Origin: Cylindrobasidium torrendii FP15055 ss-10
Lineage: Eukaryota > Basidiomycota > Agaricomycetes > Agaricales > Physalacriaceae
Length of the DNA stretch: 38,565 nt
Direction: 5' to 3'
Assembly: GCA_000934385.1 (NCBI GenBank)
Contig: KN880507.1
Location: forward strand, 1 to 38,565
This document shows positions 1,993 through 38,565 of this stretch, one piece after another (the stretch's first letter is position 1; each line of letters opens with the position of its first letter). The translations under genes were made by a program, and so were the position numbers. The notes beneath the pieces were generated by a model. The model searched no databases, had not been told where the DNA came from, and saw only the letters and a program-made list of their open reading frames with translations.

Positions 1993-4900
1993 ATGTCCAG
2001 CCATTCGAGCAGCCCAACACCCTTCTCCCGGTTTTCGCGTATCGGACTCTTCAAATCTTCCTCTCCGTCACCCAGTCATCGTGCACGCAGTGGGAAAGGT
2101 GGAGAAGATAGCGACAGCTGGTATATTCCCTACAACGGACCTTTCGAGGCTCCTAGGCCGTCGCACGTTCAGCCCAAGGACAGGGACAGTTGGGGCGATT
2201 CGGTATACGGCGGCAACGGTGGCGGCGGAGACGAAAAGCTCATGGCGCATACCTATGCCTCCTCGAGTGCAGGGGCTTGGGATGGGCCAGACACCGACGG
2301 CACGTCAGGCCGCCAACGCTCCAAGACACTATCATCAACCACGTCTGGCGTAATGGACTTTCGGCGAGAAGGCGTTCGCCAGCGTGCACCACTACCATCT
2401 TACATCAACATCGACCCCTCTGGAGGTGTAGGAGACACACCGGCTCCGCGTCCATCGAGCGAAGCGATGCCGCCTAAGCGAAGTGGACTAGCGCAGATAT
2501 TTGGCTTCGGGAAAACGAAACCCCTGCGAGTAGTTCCCAAAACACCGTGCGTGCAATCTGATCCGCTTCATCTTGTTCTTACATCTTCTGTAGGCGAAGT
2601 CCTGCCAAACCAGAACAGGGAGCCTATTCGTATGGCACGCTCGCTAGTTCACCCCACTCCCCCCTGCGCCACGGCTTTCCCCCCGACGATATACCTAGCC
2701 GTGCCACGACCGCGTCCCCGCTTGTGTTGCATCCTTACGCCTATCCTTTCCCTGCGGCAACCGAGGAAGATTTATCCCAATCTGCACCACACACGGCACC
2801 CATTGTTTCGACTAATAGCAACGACTCGGATCCATTTCGCTCTGCTCCCATGCGTCCATCACAGAGTACTGGCACCACGCGACACCAACTGAAAAACTCG
2901 ATATCAAGCCCCGACCTTCACAAGCGTTCCAAGGCGCACCCAAAGACTCGTGAACGATGGCTTTCTCCCGAGACTTGGTGTGACGCCTTGTTCTTGCCCA
3001 AGCCTCGGTTCAAAATGCGACAGGACGGGACAATCAACTACGGCAAGCGCGTCGTGAGCCCGCCAGGAAGTCCTGTTGTCACCAGCTTCCACCAGAACGA
3101 CGCCGTCTCACGTGTTCTGGCCCATTCGCGCTCTATGGTTGAGCTGCAACACCCGCAACCACCCCCGCCTGATCCAGGCCCATCAAACTACTTGAAACCG
3201 CCCCGTCCCAAAAGCTTTGCTCTGGACGACCTGGCGCTCCCCAGTCCCGTACCCTCGTTATCCAAGGTGCTAGAGGAGGGTCAGATTCTCGACCACCAGC
3301 GTCAGAAGTGGCAAACCCAGGCGAAGAAGTCGTTCCAGAACAGCCGAAGTCGTAGCTATTCACGCGCACGAACAAAATCGCTACCCAAAGACAAGAAGCA
3401 CACGAACGTCGACTTCTTGCTTGCCCGCTCGCTAGCCGGTAACCAGGATCAGATTCCGGTTCCCAGGCGCAGCCCGACAAGCTCCCATACCCACTCGAAT
3501 TCCCTCAGCAAGACCATCTCGACCAACAAGACCATTCTGACCAACACGTCTCATTCCCGGACACATTCGAAGAACGACTCCTGGAGCAAGTCTGCGAAGC
3601 GGTTCGCAAATGGTGTCATGTGTGCCGGAGATAGCTTGTCGCCAACGGACGAGAAGCCAGGCTTCGAAGAGGCGCTTCAGGCCGACGGTACACGGGTTAT
3701 ACGGTTTCGCGACCCATCCATGTCCCCTCTGGACCCAGCTCTTCTGGCCCGAAATTCGCCCAGTCAAGCGTCCAATATATCCGATTCGCGCGTTGGAATT
3801 GCTCTCTCGACACCTCCAATGTTACAGTCCAACCGGGAGAGCATACATCTGTCCTCGCATCCGTACGCTCAAGGTGGATCATACTCATACGGGGCATCAG
3901 CACGTCGAGAAACGGAAGCTAGTGCTGGCGAGCGATATGATCATCAAATGGCTTTTCCACATCCCTACGCTATGTATGGCGGCAACAACCGGGATTCTGG
4001 TCATTCAAGCGGGCTGCCAGAAGTACGTGTCGAGGAGGTGCCACACGAGGATTCGATGTGGACACGGTACGACGATGGCCAGGTTCGTGAAGTGTATCCT
4101 CGGGAGCTGCAATACTCGCCGTACATGATGAGTACCCCTGGGGGCCGGGAGTCGGCACACATCTACGATATGGTGGGTGTGGCAGAGGCTCTGGCTAACA
4201 CTATGCGCTCAAGAGATAGTGGGATGGATGCTGGTGGCGGGCATCCCTATAGTGCCGGGGCAACAAGAGAGGATTTCCCTCCGCCTCCACCGCCGCCGCA
4301 ACATCGCCAGCCAGTCGAGTACGATGCAACGCAGCCACTGTACCGGAGGAAGTTTGAGGCCAACCATGAACCGTTGGTTGCTCCAGATATGCGGCTGGGT
4401 GTGTCGAGGGCCAATTCGTCGACGAGCAGCCAGGCGCGTACACCGGATACATCCTCGTCAGCGGAGTCTACCAGAGGGCCATTGGGAAGTGTAGACGACT
4501 TGGACAATTATCGGGATTTGTTCTACCAGCCTGGGCCGGGTGCGCTGAAGCGGACGGCGTCGCAGCGCAGCCAACTCACAACTCTCGCGAGGCAACTCGA
4601 GCAGGAGTATGAGGAGCTGAGTCAGGGTCGGGAGTCTGGAGATATAGACAGGTCCAGCTTGAGAGACAGAAATTCGGCGTTCTCGAGTAACCGGAGCGCG
4701 CCGTTAAGGGGTGATGGCGCGATACAATTCGTTTTCTCTGACGACGCAAGTGTTGTTGGACAAAGGGTTGTATCGCGGAGAGGAAGCATCCTGCCCTTCC
4801 ATCCCAGCGTTTCTATTCCGGAGGATGTTGAGTCTGCAAGTATCGTTGAGCAGAGTCCGACCGAGGAGAGTGCAGGTGCGTACATCCTTTTTGTCCGTTA

Positions 4901-10967: not shown

Positions 10968-11746
10968 CTAGAGTAGCTCGTCATCACGCCCCCCACTATC
11001 TGACAACCCATTGTAAAAGTCCTCTCCACTGTACGGACGTCTTACACGCATCAGCTCGTTTTCCACATTCCGTATATCTCTAAACAAGTCCATCACGTCG
11101 TTGTAGTGATACTGTTTCCGCCCCAAATAGGTTGTCCACTCGATAGGCGCCCCGCGCATTATACTGTGAACGTGCATCTGTGTGTCCAACCCGTCTGGAC
11201 GGTCGCGGTAATGACCAGCGCGAAGAAGCAAGGTCTTGCGTAGGAAGTAATCTGTCGGTGTTTCGTTCTCGTGCCCGCGCTCGCGGTAGCGCGCCTGGTC
11301 CCCGCGGTGCATGGTACGATACCGCCACTGGTCGGTCATGAAATGGTCCACGAGTAAAGCACGCATCGAGGGCCAGTCTCGCATCGCTTGACGTCGTGTC
11401 TCCCCCGAGGGAATTGAAAACCAGGCTGAGGCGTGGCCGACCAGCCGAAGTGGGATGAGGCGTCCAAGTCGGACGCTCGACCTGTCGTTGATCATAGCGA
11501 GATCCTCCATGGATTGAATCCATGTGAAGAGCGTGTCGGTGTCGCCGTCCCATGTTGGGATCTCCTTGATCTCGAGAGGTGCGAATACAGGTTCCTCGTC
11601 CCATGACGAGCAATTGCAAGTGCATTTAGAGGATACCTAGTAACGTCATTGAAGCTAGTGGACCTTTGAATCGATGTTTGACTTACCTGCATTGCAGAGC
11701 TCTGCACTGGGCTATGCGCTGGCGGCTGTTGGTGGTATGGGATCAT
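10968..11746 (-). CDS. Stand-alone retrotransposon Gag-like protein, 242 aa
   Basis: The protein resembles the capsid-like Gag core of Ty3/Gypsy elements: an IPTWDGDTDTLFTWIQSME start, then GHASAWF and a W..MRALLVDHF helix pair, the typical W-x-G ... A..W ... F pattern. Two exons, 11746-11687 and 11636-10968, flank a 50-nt intron with a GTAAGT donor and CTAG acceptor that joins in frame. There is no zinc knuckle, protease, reverse transcriptase or integrase nearby, and no LTR was seen on either side. The intron and isolation make either a decayed fragment or a co-opted (domesticated) gag gene possible. Residues 33-40 hold a Cys-rich patch (CTCNC) that is not a CCHC knuckle. Expression is unproven. 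Confidence 0.6.
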
Positions 11747-27322: not shown

Positions 27323-28234
27323 ATGCGCGTCTTAGCCCTTTGTTATTTTGTCTTTTCGTTTTCTCTCGCCGTCAACGCGTTTGATCTGGGTGCATGGTGT
27401 ACGGAAGCAGAACGTTCTTGTTTATACTTTTTTGTCCTAACACGTGCATACAGTCGACACCGCGATCAAGGACATTGGTAATGCCTTCAAGAACGCTGGG
27501 TTCGAGATAGCAAAGTTCTCCGAGGGCGTAGGAAGCGAAGTATCGAATGCTGCGCAGACGGTGGGCGCGTTCATCGACGAACAAGTGCAAATCATCGTAA
27601 AAGAAGCTGGCTTTGAAGATCTTGAGGCCATCAAGGGAGACATGGCGCGGGTCGTTAACATGGCCGACGAATTCAAGCGTCACTTGGACGAGCACGATAT
27701 TTCCATCGAGGACTTCAGTCAACGCTTGTCGGACGCGCTGGCGCCGCATTACGAGGCTCTTTCCGAGGAAGTGGACGGGGAGGGGTTGACTTCGCGCGAA
27801 GAGAAGATAGCGCTTGCTCTCGATCACACTGGCCAAGCGCTTCTCTTTGTGAGCGATACGTATGACCTCCCTCAAGACAAGACGCGCAGCTTGTGGGATG
27901 AACTGGCAACCGAGCTCTTACGCCTGCTCGAGATCATCGGGCAGGTTATCATCGACCATCCACTTGTGATTTTCAGCATCCTGTTCTACATCACCTTCCT
28001 GGGAGCCGCCGTCCCTCTCTTTCTACGTCTCCTCCTCAGTTTCTTTGGGTTCGGTGTGCGAGGACCTATCGCAGGTGAGTTCATGGTCCTCAGTCCTTTG
28101 AATGAATACTAAACTATATACCAGGGAGTGCCGCAGCGTGGGCCCAGCGTTACTTTTGGGGAGCAGCAGTGGAATCTGGGAGTTGGTTTGCGTGGATGCA
28201 ACGGGCTGGTATGGCGGCGGCAAAGGCGGGTTAG
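27323..28234 (+). CDS. ISG12/IFI6-like secreted or membrane protein, paralogue 1, 268 aa
   Basis: Exons: 27323-27398, 27454-28074 and 28125-28234. A signal peptide (about 1-19) is followed by a long amphipathic, Lys/Glu-rich helical region (about 27-185), a strongly hydrophobic stretch (VIFSILFYITFLGAAVPLFL) and FGFGVRGPIAG. A C-terminal Gly/Ala segment GSAAAWAQRYFWGAAVESG continues SWFAWMQRAGM and resembles the interferon-inducible Ifi-6-16 domain (ISG12/IFI27, IFI6: GSxxAxxQ...GG.V..GSxxAxLQ..G). Animal members act in mitochondria or ER and modulate apoptosis and antiviral responses; the fungal role is unknown. Compared with paralogue 2 it stops early and lacks the last Gly-rich helix. The first exon, 76 nt, and phase-1 intron are identical in size and phase in all three copies. 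Confidence 0.75.
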
Positions 28235-29042
28235 CATGGGCTCGGGACGCTCCTCGCTGTTGCTGTGTTTTGTTCGTGTTCAACGCCATTGAAAGGACTT
28301 CTGAGAATTGTAGTAAACCCTAACGGTCTGAATGTTGTTTTTGTTTGTCTTATACTTATGACATATTAAGTACCACAGTATATACATATGTACTGTTGTA
28401 AATACTAAATACGGCTTCTAGTATCTCACTTCGACGCTTGCGGATTGAATATTGAGTTTAGGCCCGCGACTGCGTTTTCGATTTGTGCATCTTTATAATA
28501 AAGAAAAATGATTAGTCAGCCAACTCGTGTGGCTTATGTAGCCAATCAGCGCTTCAGCTGAGGCCAGCGACCATGGCCAAGAAAACAAGTCTCGACGGCC
28601 CAGTGGTGGTCGAGGCGCGATCGAGACAGAGTGATGCGCCGCCAACCTACGGCCGCTTTACCAGAAACAACGTCCCATACAGCTCCATTTATAAGAGGAA
28701 GCCGACAATAACAAATATGTTAAGCTTCCATACCGTAGTCGAAGTGGCCCTCGAGCCGTGCATTGCCCGGTGAACAATGAAGAAAGTGCGCACTGCGCAC
28801 ACAAGTAGTAGAGACTCGAAAGCCTGGAAAGAATGACACCTTCAATGTAAAACATAGGGAACTGTACGCACAGGAAGGCTGAAAGCTGAATACTAGGGAG
28901 CACTCAAGGCAAAAGATTCAGAACCACCGCACGGTCAGGGAGATGGCATGGGAAATTCAGAGCGCGCGAACTGAGACTGTGGCCGCCAAAAGCACGAAGG
29001 AAGGGAGAATGCCGTTCAAATCGTGAATTTCAATACTTACGG
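28235..29042. other. Gene-free spacer after ISG12-like gene 1
   Basis: AT-rich 3' region of paralogue 1 followed by unassigned sequence. A 66-codon frame at 28573 begins ATGGCCAAG but shows no family or splice support. No terminal repeats were found before the Helitron-like remnant. Confidence 0.5.
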
Positions 29043-29185
29043 GCCCGAGAGCGTGCACCGAAGGCGCATGCGGCAGGGCAACACCAGACTCACACATCCA
29101 CTGCAGACTTCAAAGTATGTAAGGATGAATAGTAGAGTCTTTCTTCAACATGCAGACCCGTGCTTGCCACGGGCTAACTTGCTAG
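29043..29185 (+). mobile_element. Short Helitron-like remnant, copy B
   Basis: The first 38 bp match 550-587 with two mismatches. The right end has a perfect hairpin CCCGTG (29157-29162) / CACGGG (29168-29173), then C plus seven bases and CTAG (29182-29185) followed by T: the Helitron 3' end structure and the same spacing as copy A. The true 5' end may lie a little left of 29043. At about 145-170 bp it has no coding capacity. It lies directly 3' of the MYND pseudogene. Confidence 0.5.
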
Positions 29186-29326
29186 TCAGACATAAAACCA
29201 CTGTGTAGACCAACTCCTCCTGCAAGGGCGGTCAACACATGCGCATGTGAAGGGCAAAGTTGCTACGTCAATTGTGTGCAGAAAGATACGGTATGCTATA
29301 GCTACAGACTACCTGAGTGCATGCGA

Positions 29327-30439
29327 TCAGGAAAGCCCAAGTTCCGGCAACTTCATCGAGTCCTTGATCTTACTATGCGCTAACAATTTGTTGTGCCCGG
29401 ATATCCAGTCTTGTCTCTGACACGCAGCGCTGCAGTAGTACGCGCACTTGCATGAGCATGGCTCCGAGGCATGTGCCTCCTCGCCACAGCTAGCACAGGC
29501 GCGCCGTTGCAATCTATCGGCGCGTGCGGATTCTTCTTCAGCCGTGACAGTAGATGAGTCAGTCCGAAAAGGCTGGCGAAGGCACTCGATACATACACCA
29601 ACGCAATTGAAGTTGCGCAGCCTTGAGGGAGTGCTCTGATATACAAACAATCAGTGAGGAGACTTGAGGAAAGCGAATAAACCGCACCAGCTGATTTCAA
29701 TCCTGCATCTCGAAGCCAATCCAACGGCCAGAGGGTCGCGGCCAAGCGACCTAAAGAAGACATCGCGTACCAGCCGTCCTCAACACTTTCCTGAGCTGTT
29801 ATGAAGATGTAAGTGCCCAGGTTCCCGGTCTAACAGAAAAGACTACACTCACCGATTTCAAGGTCACTCTGATACGAACCAAACCACCCTGGACTGGTAT
29901 ACTCACTCCTGAAAAATGCTGCCATCATGGCACTGGCGCCTGCCTCTGCAGGGACGTCCTTCCAGTGGAAGGATGGTTTCCAGAAGAGGGACCGGTCCAC
30001 TGGCGGATTATAGCGTATCATGCTCAAATTCTCGTCGCTGATACTATGGTCATCCTGAGCGAAAGCCACCACGACGTCGCCCCGCCACATTGGCCGCGCG
30101 CTTGGGACGTCGGGGTCAACGCCCAACATTCGACACAGAGTCCTATTCTTCGGGTATGCAGTGTCTCTTGTCCAGAAGACGGCTCATTGATTGTCAAGGT
30201 GAGGATGTTGAGCGTCTCGGCCGCCTCTCAACATGCGTAGTTGGATATGGTCTTTGGTAGACGGACCGTACGTCGCACGCAGGTCTGGCGCAATCTCCCT
30301 GACCAAGGAAGCCGCCTCGTTGGAGTCGGTTCCCTCAATGTTGAAGACCATGGGCACCACCAGCGGTCCATCAGCGCTGCCATCCGAGACAGTTGCGGGT
30401 GATGGGCGGCGAGGTGGGCCATATAAACCTGTTCGGCAT
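29327..30439 (-). pseudogene. MYND zinc-finger protein pseudogene, inverted copy of the 35.2-kb gene
   Basis: Aligns along its whole length with the intact MYND gene at 35152-36269, on the opposite strand. The start (30439) encodes MPNRFIWPTSPPI, like the intact MPNIFVWPDSPPI. Lesions: a net loss of 32 bases near codons 18-40 shifts the frame; an in-frame TGA at 30186-30184 replaces a Tyr codon; and about eight bases are missing just before the AEEES segment that precedes the zinc finger. The MYND motif itself (CASCGEE ... CKCAYYCSAACQRQDW) is still readable near the end, and the splice sites of the second and third exons remain recognisable. I read it as a decaying duplicate rather than a working gene. 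Confidence 0.75.
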
Positions 30440-30947
30440 GGTGGTCAGGAAGGAAGCGGGAGACTACGGCACTGTCCAATGGACGGATCCCAACGGAAAT
30501 TAATGCGTGCCACAAACTGTTAGAATAAGGTAAGTGATAGCTATGCATTGTGTCAGTGATCCGTGGGACTGCTGCAGGGATGTTTGTATCTTTGAGCCAT
30601 ACCACTGTTTTCTGTGAAGCAGCACAAGAGCTCATATACATAGTTGAATAGCTCAAAAGATCCTTGCTCTGACAGGTTGTAGTGAGGAATCTCTTCCTCC
30701 TTGCTCATTCGCCTATAGTCTTTCAAATATATTCTTAACCGACCCACCGTCTGCGAATGGCAGGGCAGTGTTGGATTCATAATTCCGCCATTCAATGAAT
30801 TCGCAGGCATTTTCGTTACTGTGCTGAGTGGGGGAGACCAATGGGTCGACAATCGAGACTGTCAATATCGCAAGCTGTTACAAAATATCTGTTGCGAATT
30901 GGAGAATACAAAGCCCAGCGACCACGGAAAGAATACAGTGTACACTC
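30440..30947. other. Spacer between MYND pseudogene and RNPS1 gene
   Basis: A minus-strand open frame (30553-30852) lacks an early ATG and has no family resemblance. The right part is the 3' region of the RNPS1 homologue. Nothing else supported. Confidence 0.5.
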
Positions 30948-31787
30948 TCAATCTCGCATCGGCGACCTAGACCTGGACCTACTCCTGCTGTCCCGAATGT
31001 CATCTCTGCTCTTACTCCGTCTTCTCGGTGTGTACGAACGACTCCTGCTGCTGTATGACGAATAGCTCCTCGACCGTGACCGTGAGCGGGACCGGGAGTA
31101 CGTTCTGCTCCGACTACGCGAACGCGAATAAGGTGACCTGGACCGCGAGCGAGACGAGTATCGACCATAGCTTGGGGAGCGGCGCCGCAGTGGGAGTCGT
31201 CCTGGTGGGCCCCGACGCGGTGGGGAGCGGGAACGAGAGTCACGGCGTCCACGGTAAGAGTCTCTTGGCCCTGGTCTGGATTGGTAGCCTCCACCAAAGC
31301 GGCCTGGTCCACCTGCTCCGCCACGTCCACCGCCGCGACGGAAGCGGGGTGGAGAGCGAGAGCGACGGCGTGGAGGAAGACGGGGAGATCTGGAACGTGG
31401 AGAGGGAGAGCGAATGGGGTCGCTAGAGAGGATGACGGTGACAATGTTTCCGTCTAGCTGGCCGCCATCCATATGTGATTGCGCTTTTGCGGCTGCGGAC
31501 GAATCGGCAAATTCGAGCGCTGCTTTGCCTCTGTTTTGTTGTGCTACAAATTGCCAGGTTAATTTTTTGCTCTTTTTCAAGAGGGAGGAAAATGTGGGCA
31601 TACATTTGGCGTACAGAGGGATGTCGATTTTGTTTATACGGCCGTAGACGGAAAAGACGGCTTGGAGATGTGGTTGGACGATGTTTCGTGTCAAATTGGA
31701 TATAACGACCACGCGTGGCTCTCTTGGAGACGGTGAGCGACCCCGGGAGTGCGAACGGCCGCGGGACAGCGAACGCGACCGTGACAT
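30948..31787 (-). CDS. RNPS1: RNPS1-like RRM protein with C-terminal RS domain, 259 aa
   Basis: RNPS1 is a nuclear RNA-binding protein of the ASAP/exon-junction complex that links splicing to mRNA export and decay. Exons: 31787-31604 and 31543-30948. A short Arg-Ser N-terminus precedes a single RRM (about 26-100) with RNP2-like VVVISNLTRNI, then YGRINKIDIPL, and the RNP1 region GKAALEFADS. HMDGGQLDG matches the family's HMDGGQIDG. The rest is Arg/Ser/Pro and Gly-rich (RS) low complexity. The 60-nt intron is a multiple of three and has no stop, so retention would add 20 residues inside the RRM; splicing gives the better RRM alignment. Divergent with RRP42 across 94 bp. Confidence 0.87.
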   Translation of the reverse strand: MSRSRSLSRGRSHSRGRSPSPREPRVVVISNLTRNIVQPHLQAVFSVYGRINKIDIPLYAKCMPTFSSLLKKSKKLTWQFVAQQNRGKAALEFADSSAAAKAQSHMDGGQLDGNIVTVILSSDPIRSPSPRSRSPRLPPRRRSRSPPRFRRGGGRGGAGGPGRFGGGYQSRPGPRDSYRGRRDSRSRSPPRRGPPGRLPLRRRSPSYGRYSSRSRSRSPYSRSRSRSRTYSRSRSRSRSRSYSSYSSRSRSYTPRRRSKSRDDIRDSRSRSRSRSPMRD

Positions 31788-31881
31788 GGTGGGAGGAGAA
31801 CAAGCAAAGTGCTAGGGTTAGGTCTTATTCTAGTTTGCCAGGCAATGTTACATTAGGTTAGATTCTATCTTTTCGACCACC
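31788..31881. promoter_or_regulatory. 94-bp bidirectional promoter of RNPS1 and RRP42 homologues
   Basis: The two start codons face away from each other across only 94 bases. No TATA box is visible; AGGTTAGATTC and GGGTTAGGTC repeats occur near the middle. Confidence 0.5.
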
Positions 31882-33018
31882 ATGATATCCAAAGCAGAAA
31901 AGTCGTACATCCAAGCTGGACTTCTTGCGACGCCGCCGCGCCGACACGATGGCCGTGCACCCACAGAATATCGTAATATTGCGCTGGAAACTGGCGTCGC
32001 CCCGCTTGCAAACGGCAGTGTGCGCCTTCATATTGGACGTGCTGAAGACGGCAGCGGCGGAACCCAAATTCTTGCGGCTTCCAAACTCGAAGTAGAAAAC
32101 GCCGAGCCTGGTGGGCCAGACGCTGGAAGGATATCCGCCGCCGTGTCTTGGTACGTCTATTCCACCTTTTCGCCGCATTTTGTTCATCGACGGACTGTGA
32201 AGACAGCTCTCCGACTGCATACCCCAATTTGTCTTCCAATGCACTTGATGACCTTCAGCACGACTTGACAACCGTCCTGCACGAAACACTTTCCCACCCA
32301 TCGTTGCACCCAGCCAATCTCTCGATCATCACAGGCAAAAAGTACTGGGTCCTCCACCTGGACGTTGTCGTACTATCCGACGCAGGCAACATATACGACG
32401 CCATTTTCATGGCCGCTTATGCCGCCCTATGGGATACCAAAGTGCCCAGGACGCGTAATATCGAATACAAGACGCGTCGGACACAGCGTGACGGCGATAT
32501 GGATGTCGACGAGGACACTGCCAGTGGGTTCGACACCCGCAACATTTCCAAGGCCGCGGACTTTGAACTACAGGACTACTGGGACGAGGGAGAGGTGCTG
32601 TCCGGCAGAGATGCATGGCCCATTGCGGTCACCTTGAATATTGTATGTTCCCCCTTACATGCGTTTTCATCGTCACTGACGTTTTCGTAGGAGTCTACAA
32701 CCCATTTTCTCGACGCAGAGCCGCAAGAAGAGCAAGCGTCTCCGCTACGCTTACTCACGCTCTACTCGTTTGTGTCACCCAAACCTTCGCTGCAAGCTAT
32801 CCGCACGCTGGGACCAGGCGAACTCAAACTGCCTCAAATCAATACATTGTTACAAGTGCGCACTATGTTGTTCCACCCGACCTGAGTTTACATTTGCACA
32901 GCACAGCGAAGAGTACGCCTCTGAGCTATCGAAATCATTACGGGCAAGACTTGTTGAAGAGGATATCCGCAGAAATCAAAAGGCACACGAAAGGTTTTCT
33001 GACCGGTTTAGTTCGTAG
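31882..33018 (+). CDS. RRP42: Exosome complex subunit RRP42 (EXOSC7-like, RNase PH fold), 328 aa
   Basis: Non-catalytic ring subunit of the RNA exosome, which threads RNA to Rrp44/Rrp6 in rRNA, mRNA and snRNA processing. Exons: 31882-32150, 32207-32642, 32691-32855 and 32902-33018. It begins ISKAEKSYIQAGLLATPPRR, like EXOSC7 LSEAEKVYIVHG, with the DGR motif (RRHDGRAPTEYR). It continues with a CSPTAYPN segment, the LHLDVVVLSDAGNIYDAIFM strand-helix typical of RRP42, and AALWDTKVPR. A species-specific acidic insert (about residues 165-195) carries DGDMDVDEDT. The catalytic residues of bacterial RNase PH are not retained, as expected. Length is slightly above human EXOSC7 (291). Confidence 0.9.
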
Positions 33019-33457
33019 TTATCTGACTGTTTATCGAAACCGCGCATTTGAGAAGCACGTTTGAGCTGGAACCCACGCGTGTAACACCTCCCGGGGTTTC
33101 GTCACATTTCACTTCGTCAAGGTCAATTAAGAGGGTCCCATTCCCTTGGGTGAAGGTGATATATGGCAAGAAGCAAGCATTTCTTGTGCTATTCCAGCCA
33201 ACCTGCAGCCAACTATCCGTACAACCTGGTTGAACAAGCGAAACGATAGGCAAGACGGCAAGGTCACAACGGCGTTGATGAGGACTTGTTGCGCGCGCTA
33301 CCGCCGCCCCACACTAACGTGCAACAGAACCCGAATCAAACAAATACCTCGGCTTTCGTGGAGCGCTAAGATTTGCGATTTTTTGCTCTCTCACCCTCAC
33401 CTACATACCCGGCGTCTCCGCCCCAGCTCACCCCACACTCATTTTCTTTTTTTCGCA
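33019..33457. other. Spacer with promoter of the lipase-like gene
   Basis: Holds the RRP42 3' end and the leader of the next gene, which ends in a T-rich tract (CTTTTTTTCGCA) immediately before the ATG. No other gene is supported. Confidence 0.5.
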
Positions 33458-34889
33458 ATGCGCTTCTCTTTCGTATTCTGCTCTCTGCTTCCTTGTGCCA
33501 TCATGGCTGCAACGGTTCCCCCTCCGGCCAAACGTGCGCAGAGCAACCCGAACCCCACTGCGCCTGGCAACGCAGACTCGGGCTGGCAAGAGATGCCCGA
33601 CGTTATCGACGCAGAGAAATTCCCAGCGTGGGTTATCGATGAAGGACTTGGCGCGAAGATGGTGCGTATCCCGACGCCGCGTGTCATGACCATCCCAACT
33701 TACTACCCCATCATCAGCCGGTGTACCAATCTGCCGGCGTCGTCGCTGCGGATGTGAAGCGTGCTATCATCGTTGGCCCGGGAAAGGTGCGCCCACCCTC
33801 CGACCCGCGTTGAGCCCACATGTAATTCTAATCTAAATTATACTAGCTCCGCGACTGTTGGTACTACTGGAACTCGATGAACAATGCGCTGTATATTGCT
33901 GCTGAATCCGACTCGACTATCCAGCGCTCGGAGGTGTCTATTATGGCCCCGTGTTTCTTCACGCCGAAGGACCAGGAGGCGGGTGCTGCGACTGACGGTG
34001 TCCTCACCTGGGGGGACACTACCTGGGCCAGCGGGCACTATAACAAAGGCCCCGATAGTATCGAGAAGTACTCGTCATTCACAGTGATGGATAAGCTGGT
34101 CGAGTATTACATGAACCGCGACATTTTCCCGAACTTGAATGTGCGTCCTCCCCCTCGTTCCTCGAATCCCTCTTTCCTGGCCCCTGGAATTGTTGTGCCA
34201 AGTCCATGGGTCCATGACTGCAAGTACTGGGAGCTCATGCGGTTCACAGACTGTCGTCATTGCTGGCCACTCCCTCGGCGCACAGCTCTCACAACATTAC
34301 GCTGCACTGCGCTCGACGACCGACAACGACGACCGCCTCCACTTTTGGATTGCCAACCCCGGCTCTCTTCTCTGGCTCAGCAAGGACAGACCAGCACCCA
34401 ATGACGCGTGTGACGGTGTCGATGTATACAAGTACGGACTCTCTAGCGGTTTCCCTGGCTATGCAAAGGGCGCGGCGCGTACACTCGGGCGCGAGGGAAT
34501 CGTCAGCCAGTACAACAGCCGTAACATTCACTATGCGTGGGGTATGGACGATGATGGCAAGGGCGATACGCGCTGCCAGGCTGTTGTACGTTTCCTTTAT
34601 CTCGATCCCATATCCTAAGGAAAGAACGCTGACGCTTGGAATGTAGACGCAAGGTAGCACGCATCTCGAGCGAGGGCAGAACTTTGTTGCCATGCTCAAG
34701 GATATCAATGGCGGAGACCTGCCTGCGTCTGCAACTGTTGACTACGTCGAGGGCGTGTCGCATTACAACGAGGGTATGATGAACAGTGACCAAGGGATTG
34801 ACAAGGTATGCAATTTATGTCAAGCCTGAGCATTTGATTGAAAAGTGGTTTTGTAGCTCTTCAAATTGAACTATAACGGCCCCTCATAA
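33458..34889 (+). CDS. Secreted lipase-like alpha/beta hydrolase, 364 aa
   Basis: Predicted secreted serine hydrolase. Exons: 33458-33661, 33718-33786, 33847-34140, 34250-34585, 34647-34805 and 34857-34889. A signal peptide (about 1-18, SFVFCSLLPCAIMAA) is followed by a Pro/Asn-rich linker. The nucleophile elbow is AGHSLGAQ (S197), and the probable catalytic His is in VEGVSHYNEGM (about H340); the acid is not assigned. The region before the elbow (RDCWYYWNSMNNALY, then MAPCFF) is shared by an agaricomycete hydrolase family I know only as uncharacterised. The third intron is unusually long here (109 nt) but joins NLN to TVVIAGHSLG smoothly. Substrate is unknown; lipase, cutinase or acyl esterase would all fit. 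Confidence 0.8.
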
Positions 34890-35151
34890 ATGGCATGAAT
34901 GCCATCCTAGATACCCATGTGTAGATCCCGGTGAATACCTCAGATAGACGCTGTTGCTTGCGATGGTCTATAAGTAATCCGTGCCCTATTTATCACAACC
35001 TTGCAATCGTAACTTTTGACTTTGACTGCAGAGCCTACAGCTAGCTACATTGAATGTATAGGCGCGCGCGCCGAGTCCCGCCTTGTGACCGCTGAATTGT
35101 GACTTATCTCACGCTTTAGCCGAATAGATTCCCTCTTCTTTCTTGACCACC

Positions 35152-36269
35152 ATGCCTAACATTTTCGTGTGGCCAGACTCCCCGCCCATTGTCCGCAAAT
35201 GCCTCGTCTACAAAGCCGATGCCAGCGCCATTGACCCACTGGTGGTAGACCCAGGCCCGTCGGTGATACCCATGCTCTTCAACATCGAGGGCACCGACTC
35301 CAACTTCATGGCCTCGACTATTAGCGAACTTGCGCCGGACCTGCGCGCGACGTACGGTCCAGCTACCAAAGACCATATCCAGCTGCGCATGACTGAGTAC
35401 GGACGAGATCCTCTACGTCCCCATCTTCAAAATTATTACACCATCTACTGGACAAGAGATATCGCACATCCGAAGAACGAGACGCTATGTCGAATGTTGG
35501 GCGTCGACCCCGATGTCCCGAGCACGCGGCCAATGTGGCGGGGCGACGTCGTGGTGGCTTTTGCGCAGGAAGATCAGCGTATTATCCACGAGAATATGAT
35601 GATGGTGCACCAGCGAAGAGCGAACCCTGCCTTCTTTTGGAAGGATGTCCCCGCAGAGGCGAGTTGTGTGATGACAGGATTCTTTCGTGAAGAGTATGCC
35701 AGTCCTCAGTGGCTTAAATCCTATTACGACGACCTCGAATGGGGTGAGTATGGATTCTGTCCTCCTTGAGGGTTTGCTCGCTTATCACACGTTCATACCA
35801 GCTCAATTCAATCTTGAGAGTCAAATATGCAAGATGTCTCCTCTGAATCGCTCCGCAACGACCATCTTGCCATGGGATCGGCTTCGTGACGAAAAATTAA
35901 AATCATCTGGTGCATTGTATTTTCTCTCCCGGCCCTTGAATTTTCTCGCTGATTATGTGCATATCAGAGCACGACCTCGAGGTCGCAGAACTCCATATGC
36001 GTTGGGGCATGTATCCAGCGCTATTCTCACAACAAGCAGCTGACCAACCTATCCCATTAGCTGAGGAAGAATCTGAACGCGCCGAGAGATTCAAACGACG
36101 AGCCTGCGCTAGCTGTGGCGAAGACAGACCCATGAAAGTCTGCCCATGCAAGTACGCGTACTACTGCAGCGTATCGTGTCAAAAGCAAGACTGGAAGTCC
36201 GGGCACAAGGCATTACTGGCGCATAGGAAGGACGGTAAGCAGTGGACGGTTGATCACGAAGTTTACTGA
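35152..36269 (+). CDS. MYND zinc-finger protein, 333 aa
   Basis: Exons: 35152-35743, 35802-35909 and 35968-36269. The N-terminal ~200 residues form an uncharacterised globular domain (MPNIFVWPDSPP ... MWRGDVVVAF ... FFWKDVPAEA). The C-terminus carries a MYND-type zinc finger: C280/C283 (CASC), C292, C294, C300 and C304 (CPCKYAYYCSVSC), H313 and a final H319 in place of the usual Cys. MYND domains mediate protein-protein contacts. The N-terminal domain is conserved with the inverted pseudogene at 29.3-30.4 kb, so the whole gene was duplicated. Splice phases 1 and 1 agree in both copies. It neighbours two ISG12-like genes on the same strand. Partners unknown. Confidence 0.8.
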
Positions 36270-36908
36270 GCACCGAGTGTCAACCTGGACGCAAGTTTCC
36301 GTCACTAGTAGCAAGTGTATCGTTAATTCCACGGCCCTTGAATTGGGTATATATACCGTTTAGATTAGTTTCTTGAAGTGTTTGGTAGACCGCATGCACA
36401 CATACTACTTGGCACAGGTGTTATCGTTCCCGCTTTCAGCTAAGTTGTTTATGGAGGCAAGCGGAATGGACTGGTCGTGATGTGATGAGCCCGACACTCT
36501 GCATGATATCCATTCGCTCTGTCGTAACTGAGCTATCATGTAGGTGAAGCTCATCCAAAAACGGAATTAGCTCCCTTCCGTGGCTCTGCTACACCACCAA
36601 GGACATCTCCCAAGTGAGAAGAATGGATGCTCGTTGCTCACGGGACTCCTTCAAGCTCATGTCTGGCCGTAAGGTCCCGCCGTATTAGGAACAAGTGAAT
36701 TGGCTTGATCAGTCCTATGTTTCTGTATAGATTTTCGATTTTTCCCATCAGGCGCAACTGGATTCCCAATTAGGTTTCGGCAGACTCGGCAGCGCTGATG
36801 TGACTGATCGGAGCTTATGTATTAAAAGCGTGAGAAAGTAGACAAAGCGCCTAAGTATTTATTAGCGCTTTGCGTAGCACGAGGAGTTTGACTTCTTTGC
36901 GAACCGCC
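36270..36908. other. Spacer upstream of ISG12-like gene 2
   Basis: No open frame of interest on either strand. The last 100 bp contain a TATTAAAAG element near 36822 that could act as a TATA box. The promoter does not resemble those of paralogues 1 and 3. Confidence 0.5.
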
Positions 36909-37852
36909 ATGAGGGTATTTTTCCTGTTTGCCACTATACTCTCGCTGGCCACGGTCGGCCAAGCTCTGAGCATTGCCGAATGGTGTTCGTACCACGCGTG
37001 CTGCCTTTCTGATATGACATACTAATTTATTTTACAGTTTCTGGTTCGGATAACTTCTGGGAGCGGATGGTGAAAATCCAGCGCAACGTCGAGGGCTACG
37101 TCGATGGCCAGATCAAGAATATCAGCACAATCACTGGAGCCAAGCATCTTGGTATGATCAAGGACGGCATGTCCGAGGTCGTCTCCCGTGCATCGAATCT
37201 TAGAGATATTCTGGAGAGCCATGGAGCGTCGACGGACGATATTTCCGACCACTTTACCGAAGCCCTTGGCAGCCTTTTTGCGGACATGGAGGTCGAAGCC
37301 GAGGTGGACTTCACCAGGGAAACCGAGACGACTGAAGAAATGCGCCATGCACGTGTGGAACATGCTTTGGACCGCATCGGAGAGGTTATTGTGCGCTCGT
37401 GTGTCCAGATGAACGTTCCCGAGACGGAGGGGCGCGCACATTGGGAAGCACTTCGCGTCAAGCTGCAGCACGTCCTCCTTGTCACGCTTAAATTCACCGA
37501 AGAGCATCCTACCTTCATTGCTAATGTGTGCTTCGTCATTGCCGGTCTCCTGCTCAGCGAAGTTCTCATTCTACGCCCTATCCTTGCCTTGTTTGGGTTT
37601 GGCCCTTACGGTCCTATCAAAGGCGCGTCAAACAAGATCTCTTCAGCGTATTTCACTTATAATTCTTTAGGAACCGCTGCCGCTTGGGCTCAGCGCTATT
37701 TCTGGGGTGCCGCGGTCGAAGCTGGAAGCTGGTTTGCACGTCTTCAGGCTGCGGGGATGGCTACACCACGCGTAATTGCGCCCATTGTTGGAGGTGTCAT
37801 TGGTGGCATCGGCGCTGGTTTTGCCTTGTGTGGTCGAAACTCTCGCGGATAG
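36909..37852 (+). CDS. ISG12/IFI6-like secreted or membrane protein, paralogue 2, 296 aa (280 if spliced)
   Basis: Exon 1 is 36909-36984 (76 nt) and exon 2 starts at 37038. The rest is either one exon to 37852 or is split by a GC-AG intron at 37623-37670. Signal peptide about 1-20; helical charged domain about 30-175; hydrophobic segment FIANVCFVIAGLLLSEVLIL; then FGFGPYGPIKG. The ISG12-like motif is AAAWAQRYFWGAAVEAGSWF followed by ARLQAAGM, and a last Gly-rich helix APIVGGVIGGIGAGFALCG follows, the full Ifi-6-16 layout (two hydrophobic helices). The position homologous to paralogue 1's second intron has GC instead of GT and is an uninterrupted 48-nt in-frame insert. Role unknown; membrane insertion or pore-like activity is inference from animal ISG12 proteins. 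Confidence 0.78.
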
Positions 37853-38008
37853 CTGCTCGAACAAGTCATTCTGTACAGTGATGTATATTCCTTACGATGT
37901 ATTCCTTTGTCTAGTTACTCCTTTTCATTTGTGAACCATTTTATTTCCCTGTAATTCAATTACGGAACTTGGATTTGCTCGGACTTGTGCATACCGGAGA
38001 ATGGATTT

Positions 38009-38111
38009 GATCGGTTGGCCATGCACTCACGCAAGGTCGAGCGTGGGAACACTAGCACACGTTGCCGTACTCTGCTTCTCACCACCACGACCACTTGTGA
38101 CGGCAAGCAGA
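38009..38111 (+). promoter_or_regulatory. Promoter-proximal module of ISG12-like gene 3, shared with gene 1
   Basis: Same ordered blocks as before paralogue 1 (27228-27322), including GAGCGTGGGAA and GCAGAATGCGC across the start codon. The TTTAAAAG of gene 1 is not conserved here. Points to a recent duplication that included the promoter. Confidence 0.55.
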
Positions 38112-38565
38112 ATGCGCCTGGAATCCCTCTTCTACTTCCTATTTTCACTTGTCGTTGCTGTCAATGCGTTAGACGCAGGCGCAAGGTGTACGGCACTGGA
38201 ATGTTTGTACTTTGACCTTTGAAGCCTGACACGTATACATAGCTAACGGCGCAGGAGTCGCTGTCAAGGATGCTGAGTCCCAGGTGTCCAAGATTGCCAA
38301 GGATGTCAGGGATGAAGCAGCAAAAGCCGCGCAGAGTGTTGGCGCGTTCATCGACGAGCAAATCCAGGCCGGCTTCGCGGGCGAAATCAAAAACAAAATC
38401 AAGAAGACCATCAGCACTGCGAACGACTTCAAGAAATACCTCGATGAGCACGATATTGGTGTTGACGAGTTGCATCGCACAGCCGGAGGCTGGTTGGCTT
38501 GGGGAGGCTGCGCAGCATTTCACGCCATGCCTCTGAGATCGGATCGAGCACGTGAGACGTGCCGT
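38112..38565 (+). CDS. ISG12/IFI6-like protein, paralogue 3 (5' part, runs off the window; frame possibly broken)
   Basis: Exon 1 is 38112-38187 (76 nt, signal peptide SLFYFLFSLVVAVNA); exon 2 starts at 38243 after a 55-nt intron whose ends match paralogue 1's (GTACGG donor, ACACGT before the acceptor). The helical domain is clearly homologous to paralogue 1: SVGAFIDEQIQ and DFKKYLDEHDIGVDEL. After DEL the annotated frame stops resembling the paralogues, while fragments of the expected sequence (LGEAAQHFT, SEIGSST) appear in the two other frames, so one or more small indels are likely. The ISG12-like part lies beyond the right edge and cannot be judged. Confidence 0.6.

What the first reader, a model, noticed from the sequence alone, without database searches (positions are those of the whole stretch)
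27323..38565. Cluster of three secreted ISG12/IFI6-like genes in a fungus
Seen: three paralogues with signal peptide, charged helical domain, hydrophobic segment, FGFGxxGPI and (in the two complete copies) a conserved AAAWAQRYFWGAAVE motif followed by GSWFA..Q.AGM. Known: this resembles the Ifi-6-16 domain of interferon-inducible ISG12/IFI27 and IFI6, small hydrophobic proteins acting on mitochondrial or ER membranes in cell death and antiviral response. Inference: the fungal forms join an exported helical domain to the hydrophobic domain, and local copy-number change suggests a defence, allorecognition or cell-death role. No function is shown by sequence alone.
Basis: partly seen in the sequence, partly recalled or inferred. 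Interest (0 to 1): 0.75.

Follow-up and report, generated by a model that had tools for sequence, protein, structure and literature searches.

The report
Mushroom membrane proteins with ISG12-like tail
A mushroom carries two intact genes, and part of a third, for proteins that join a fast-changing helical part to a highly conserved membrane tail related to the animal antiviral and cell-death proteins ISG12 and IFI6; the kinship is well supported, but the function is unknown.

Summary
The window is a scaffold of Cylindrobasidium torrendii (Agaricales). Two complete genes (A, 27323-28234; B, 36909-37852) encode a signal-like N-terminus, a predicted five-helix bundle, a hydrophobic segment and an Ifi-6-16-type tail. 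A third (C, from 38112) shows only the signal and the start of the bundle before a 2,293-base run of N, so 'three ISG12/IFI6-like genes' is two plus a tail-less fragment. The kinship holds: PF06140 is the top Pfam hit (E 6.9e-6 and 7.3e-5), though below Pfam's own cut-off; 0 of 10 tail-shuffled controls hit; 37 of 38 aligned relatives match; profile-profile comparison with classical-type proteins gives 97%; and an intron sits in the same codon and phase in A, B and a classical Ifi-6-16 gene of the same genome. Named relatives come from 12 genera; five genome records hold two to four copies. The 40-residue tail is more conserved than the bundle in 496 of 496 pairs (medians 75% and 27%), as a constant effector with a variable sensor would show. 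I read these as membrane-anchored proteins, bundle outside, whose tail acts on membranes. A defence or cell-death role is plausible but unproven.

The parts
27323..28234 (+). Gene A, 268 aa, three exons (27323-27398, 27454-28074, 28125-28234): signal-like segment about 1-19, helical domain about 26-185, hydrophobic segment about 186-214, Ifi-6-16-type tail 223-262
   Evidence: Spliced model; PF06140 E 6.9e-6, 26.3 bits, cut-off 29.1; hydropathy
28075..28124 (+). Intron 2 of gene A, phase 1, inside the Gly codon of GPIA-G (residue 233)
   Evidence: same codon and phase as in B and in the classical gene on C317, by the alignment
28125..28231 (+). Gene A exon 3, coding part: holds the conserved tail AAAWAQRYFWGAAVESGSWFAWMQRAGM
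   Evidence: 32 of 40 residues identical to B over FGFG to GM
36909..37852 (+). Gene B, 280 aa, three exons (36909-36984, 37038-37622, 37671-37852): signal-like segment about 1-20, five-helix bundle about 32-181, helix 183-209 holding the hydrophobic segment 186-204, Ifi-6-16-type tail 211-250, C-terminal hydrophobic segment 255-273
   Evidence: Equals CYLTODRAFT_395722; PF06140 E 7.3e-5, 23.0 bits; AlphaFold2 pLDDT 79, pTM 0.75; hydropathy
37623..37670 (+). Intron 2 of gene B, phase 1, inside the Gly codon of GPIK-G (residue 221)
37040..37507 (+). DNA for the helical domain of gene B, residues 27-182, modelled alone
   Evidence: AlphaFold2 pLDDT 88.7, pTM 0.78, five helices
38112..38565 (+). 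Gene C, 5' part only (exons 38112-38187 and 38243 to window end): signal-like segment and start of the helical domain; the contig then reads N; the last ~87 bases before the Ns lie outside the match to A

Best explanation
Genes A and B, and probably C, belong to a mushroom branch of the Ifi-6-16 domain superfamily. Shown by sequence: an N-terminal hydrophobic signal-like segment, a helical domain of about 150 residues, a strong hydrophobic segment, then a highly conserved tail homologous to the ISG12/IFI6-type domain; a partial duplicate next door. Inferred: the signal segment sends the protein into the secretory pathway, the helical bundle faces the ER lumen or cell exterior, the hydrophobic segment spans the membrane, and the Gly/Ala-rich tail lies in or against the cytosolic side. 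The proposed working is that the variable helical domain senses or binds something (ligand, partner protein, lipid or the same protein on another membrane) and that clustering lets the constant tail disturb or reshape the membrane, giving ER or plasma-membrane stress, permeability change or cell death. I hold homology and topology together at about 0.85, a membrane-acting tail at about 0.5, and a defence or cell-death outcome at about 0.25.
For: PF06140 is the top Pfam hit of A and B; it is matched by 30 of 32 members at E 0.1 or better and by 37 of 38 at E 10 or better; 0 of 10 tail-shuffled controls matched it. Profile-profile comparison of the 38 with 15 classical-type proteins (10 of them from named fungi): probability 97.3, E 2.1e-11, over FGFG...LQ. 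The intron is in the same Gly codon and phase in A, B and the classical gene CYLTODRAFT_494402. In 38 of 38 FGFG-bearing proteins the net charge just after the hydrophobic segment is more positive than just before it, as for N-out/C-in topology (stretches chosen by me). 23 of 33 that start with Met have a signal-like hydrophobic N-terminus by a cut-off of mine. Tail identity exceeds helical-domain identity in 496 of 496 pairs of 32 proteins. Animal precedents with signal peptide plus Ifi-6-16 domain: human IFI6 at the ER acting with BiP, and shrimp LvIFI6-16 (passages read).
Confidence: 0.4

Rival explanations
1. Housekeeping role in the secretory pathway: the proteins are ER or wall-associated membrane proteins that shape membranes or stabilise lumenal clients, with no immune role; local duplication is neutral.
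For: Human IFI6 itself is reported to act at the ER with BiP (passage read). The tail is highly conserved over the aligned family. Among ten neighbouring ORFs scanned, the five with hits are ordinary (MYND finger, RNase PH type, protein mannosyltransferase, TCP-1 chaperonin, multicopper oxidase).
Against: Copy number differs between genome records and the helical domain diverges fast (median 27% identity), unusual for a core housekeeping factor.
Confidence: 0.35
2. Exported effector or antimicrobial: the proteins leave the cell and the hydrophobic tail attacks membranes of competing microbes.
For: Signal-like N-terminus and hydrophobic tail; local duplication.
Against: A strong hydrophobic segment before the tail and a uniform charge bias (38 of 38) suggest membrane anchoring with the tail inside; there are almost no cysteines in the helical domain (0 in A, 1 in B), unlike many secreted fungal toxins (recalled).
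Confidence: 0.1
3. The Ifi-6-16 resemblance is compositional convergence of a Gly/Ala-rich hydrophobic segment.
For: Scores of A and B are below the Pfam cut-off.
Against: 0 of 10 shuffles hit; 37 of 38 relatives hit; profile-profile 97.3%; shared intron codon and phase.
Confidence: 0.03

Closest known systems
Ifi-6-16 family, PF06140 (vertebrate ISG12/IFI27, IFI6; shrimp LvIFI6-16)
   Same: Match to the family profile in a hydrophobic Gly/Ala-rich stretch near the C-terminus; IFI6 and LvIFI6-16 are reported to have a signal peptide and transmembrane parts (passages).
   Different: Human IFI6 is 130 aa (passage); 37 of the 38 aligned relatives are 247-387 aa, with a helical domain of about 150 residues, a tail with SWF, AAW and FWG, and Pfam scores under the cut-off for A and B. 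No animal sequence was aligned here.
Classical fungal Ifi-6-16 proteins, e.g. CYLTODRAFT_494402 in the same genome (contig C317)
   Same: Aligned tail (41% identity with A, 45% with B), same intron codon and phase.
   Different: 179 aa, no signal-like N-terminus by eye, passes the Pfam cut-off (33.8 bits), tail of the GSLAALWQASMGNVAAGSLFAGLQ type, two residues shorter in the middle.
Fungal HeLo / Goodbye / MLKL-like helical-bundle domains of NLR proteins
   Same: A helical bundle in a possible cell-death protein; one relative (P0024, Cerrena zonata) bears a UniRef name beginning 'Fungal STAND N-terminal Goodbye domai' (cut in the listing).
   Different: None among the families matched by 32 members at E 0.1 or better, nor among those of P0024 at E 10 or better; here the bundle is predicted to lie outside and is fused to an Ifi-6-16 tail, without an NLR part.

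Membership tests
Ifi-6-16 (PF06140) | Significant profile match to PF06140 | tested here: met
   A E 6.9e-6, B E 7.3e-5; 37 of 38 aligned proteins match at E 10 or better, best 1.7e-8; 0 of 10 shuffles
Ifi-6-16 (PF06140) | Score at or above Pfam's curated gathering cut-off (29.1 bits) | tested here: not met
   A 26.3, B 23.0 bits. 20 of 33 rows carry a precomputed PF06140.19 label (B's row does not), so that release admits much of the branch. I call A and B divergent homologues, not formal members
Ifi-6-16 (PF06140) | Homologous alignment with classical members | tested here: met
   hhalign 97.3%, E 2.1e-11 with 15 classical-type proteins, all of which match PF06140; no animal sequence was aligned here
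ISG12/IFI6 in the narrow sense | Small protein made mostly of the hydrophobic domain | tested here: not met
   268 and 280 aa with a large helical domain
ISG12/IFI6 in the narrow sense | Induced by interferon or infection; acts at mitochondria or ER on cell death or virus replication | not testable with these tools
   No expression or localisation data at hand for this fungus
HeLo / Goodbye / MLKL-like domains | Sequence-profile match of the helical domain | tested here: not met
   None among the 17 families matched at E 0.1 or better by 32 members; (38 members, E 10 or better) only 25 of 60 families are displayed, so weaker hits there are unseen
HeLo / Goodbye / MLKL-like domains | Same fold | tested here: inconclusive

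The most novel reading that the evidence does not exclude
Mushrooms use the ISG12/IFI6-type tail as the constant effector of a family of cell-surface or ER receptors: a fast-diverging helical outer domain senses self, non-self or infection, and the highly conserved cytosolic-side tail carries out membrane damage or cell death in the same polypeptide. This would put the ISG12-type membrane effector before, and outside, the interferon system.
Probability: 0.15. Interest if true: 0.85.

Novelty: new variant of a known kind. Interest (0 to 1): 0.5.

Why it matters
How ISG12/IFI6 proteins work, and what they did before interferon existed, is unsettled (recalled). A fungal branch that joins the same kind of tail to an outer helical domain, with copy-number change and no interferon, gives a genetically tractable place to ask what the tail does to a membrane. 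In the papers I could search (open-licence PMC only) I found no account of this family in mushrooms: searches returned 1, 0, 1 and 0 papers, the same one twice, a secretome survey of another fungus with one table row naming PF06140 (passage); two searches were broad and I saw only 20 of 72 and 10 of 12,411 listed.

Tried and rejected
Considered and rejected: three intact paralogues (C runs into Ns); pure convergence (shuffle control, profile-profile comparison, shared intron); a HeLo/Goodbye identity for the helical domain (no profile match at E 0.1 or better; the 'Goodbye' name of P0024 not backed by Pfam at E 10 or better). A profile search of PDB sequences listed 59 sequences at E 1 or better, the best a designed repeat protein (k-cTRP5, E 5.7e-6) and apolipoprotein A-IV (E 2.3e-4), nearly all in the helical part; I read these as compositional similarity of charged helices, untested.

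A mistake that I mended on checking: hits P0040-P0051 (E 1.9e-33 to 9.1e-8, unnamed sources) were left out of all alignments because I first took them for chance similarity. On reading seven of these twelve, they are helical-domain pieces of this same family without the tail, four of the seven ending at the same VLLVGE, close in sequence to P0019; they look like gene models cut at an intron. Ten of the twelve were scanned and gave no PF06140 match at E 0.1, as expected without a tail. They were not counted in any figure of this report.

Full report
What was checked. The window is positions 1-38565 of a 108,085-base contig in a 29.3-Mb genome. Gene B is identical to CYLTODRAFT_395722 of Cylindrobasidium torrendii FP15055 ss-10, whose longest contig has the same length; the species is an agaric of the Physalacriaceae.

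Gene models. I joined exons by hand with GT-AG borders. A has 268 residues and B 280, both with three exons. Intron 1 is phase 1 just behind the signal-like segment in A, B and C. Intron 2 is phase 1 inside the glycine codon of GPIAG (A, residue 233) and GPIKG (B, residue 221). B's intron 2 begins GC rather than GT in the model that keeps the frame and equals the public protein; the GT site four bases on broke the frame. Gene C has only exon 1 and the start of exon 2: the window stops at the edge of a 2,293-base run of N; whether that is an assembly gap or a masked stretch I cannot tell, and I take it for a gap. The match of C to A ends at 38478; the last ~87 bases before the Ns do not align and may be diverged or poorly assembled. 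In the 642 bases shown beyond the Ns I see no tail motif (by eye), and neither genome search listed a match there.

Is the Ifi-6-16 kinship real? PF06140 is the best Pfam hit for A and B, at E 6.9e-6 and 7.3e-5, but at 26.3 and 23.0 bits it falls under the curated 29.1. With the last 63 (A) or 75 (B) residues shuffled, five times each, 0 of 10 controls hit it. A search of public proteins with B gave 33 hits at E 1 or better, B itself included, and the profile search gave 36, many the same. Of 32 aligned members 30 match PF06140 at E 0.1 or better, and of 38 aligned members 37 do at E 10 or better. Fifteen classical-type proteins, 14 found with the genome's other Ifi-6-16 gene (itself included) plus P0033, all match it; ten of the fifteen bear names of fungi. 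hhalign joins the two groups at 97.3%, E 2.1e-11. That other gene, CYLTODRAFT_494402 on C317, has its intron in the corresponding glycine codon and phase. Three database proteins (P0015, P0026, P0029) carry 17-19 extra residues near that spot, which I read as unspliced introns.

Genome inventory. By protein and family search the genome shows A, B, part of C, the classical gene on C317, and a short match on C62 with FGFGPWGPVKG and, in another frame stretch, RYLFGDTILAGSWYSRLQSAG. I found no full reading for the C62 locus and describe it as a fragment. Introns split these genes, so the counts are lower bounds.

Relatives and copy number. Records list 4 copies in Imleria badia, 3 in Boletus edulis BED1, and 2 each in another B. 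edulis record set, Gautieria morchelliformis and Infundibulicybe gibba. Four pairs sit on contigs of equal length, one only 26,597 bases long (P0026 and P0032), which suggests neighbours; exact positions were not available. P0013 and P0020, on such a pair, are 89% identical in the helical domain, a recent duplication. Twelve more hits, from unnamed sources, were left out; the seven that I read are tail-less pieces of the helical domain. In this window A and C share 152 of 197 aligned bases around the start and are 45% identical in protein, whereas A and B share 35% overall.

Anatomy. AlphaFold2 with 38 sequences gives pLDDT 79 and pTM 0.75: a confident bundle of five helices, a helix at 183-209, then shorter helices at lower confidence through the tail (block means falling from 84 to 47). 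The bundle alone gives pLDDT 88.7. It has no clear solved relative. In 38 of 38 FGFG-bearing proteins the net charge rises across the hydrophobic segment, which by the positive-inside rule puts the bundle outside and the tail inside. The helical domain has a net charge of -23 in A and -13 in B; B has one N-glycosylation sequon, A none.

Constant tail, variable outer part. Between A and B the 40 residues from FGFG to GM are 80% identical (32 of 40) and the helical domain 25% (37 of 150 aligned). In 32 proteins, 496 pairs, the tail is always more alike than the domain (medians 75% and 27%). This is what a constant effector with a changing sensor would show, but a plain structural constraint would show it too. 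I had no DNA of relatives for a test of selection.

What it most likely does. Shown: homology, domain order, duplication and contrast of conservation. Inferred: secretory targeting, topology, membrane action of the tail. Reported for animals: human IFI6 has a signal peptide and two transmembrane regions and acts at the ER with BiP, and shrimp LvIFI6-16 has a signal peptide plus the domain (passages of PMC10687481 and PMC9144789). In fungi, HeLo- and Goodbye-like domains are reported as the most abundant superfamily of NLR effectors (passages of PMC9815663), but I found no sequence link to them. I therefore favour membrane-anchored proteins with a regulated membrane-acting tail, and leave defence, allorecognition or ER housekeeping open.

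Literature. Searches in open-licence PMC text returned 1, 0, 1 and 0 papers; the one paper, PMC10051545, lists one protein with Ferritin_2 and Ifi-6-16 in a table (passage). Searches were broad, and only 20 of 72 and 10 of 12,411 papers were listed; none of those titles concerns this family in mushrooms. Pfam-based labels in the database (20 of 33 rows) show that the domain itself is already recognised in these fungi. The novelty is the architecture, topology and conservation contrast, hence 'new variant of a known kind'. On checking, I lowered homology-plus-topology from 0.9 to 0.85 because the signal was judged by hydropathy alone.

Noticed in passing
29369-30466 (- strand) and 35125-36230 (+ strand): An inverted pair of MYND zinc-finger-type genes, arms 74-85% complementary (zf-MYND hit for the - strand copy), lies between genes A and B, another sign of local duplication.
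   Followed up: partly
37623-37670: Intron 2 of gene B appears to use a GC donor instead of GT; this model keeps the frame and equals the public protein.
   Followed up: no
L012 4368-4960 (- strand), contig C317: A classical Ifi-6-16 gene (CYLTODRAFT_494402, 179 aa, no signal-like N-terminus) shares the intron site with A and B.
   Followed up: yes
L011 about 3780-4115 (- strand), contig C62: Fragment with FGFGPWGPVKG and, further on, RYLFGDTILAGSWYSRLQSAG; probably a remnant of another family member.
   Followed up: partly
P0040-P0051 (unnamed sources): Close variants of the helical domain, like P0019, without a tail (seven of twelve read; four of the seven end at VLLVGE): probably gene models cut at an intron, and a hint of expansion in an unnamed fungus.
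   Followed up: partly
10971-11636 (- strand): ORF that looks like a retrotransposon Gag by eye; no Pfam hit at E 0.01.
   Followed up: no
P0033 (Geoglossum simile record): A protein with the Ifi-6-16 domain at its C-terminus behind a weak protein-kinase-like match (E 0.14): a hint that fungi put this tail on other front ends too.
   Followed up: no
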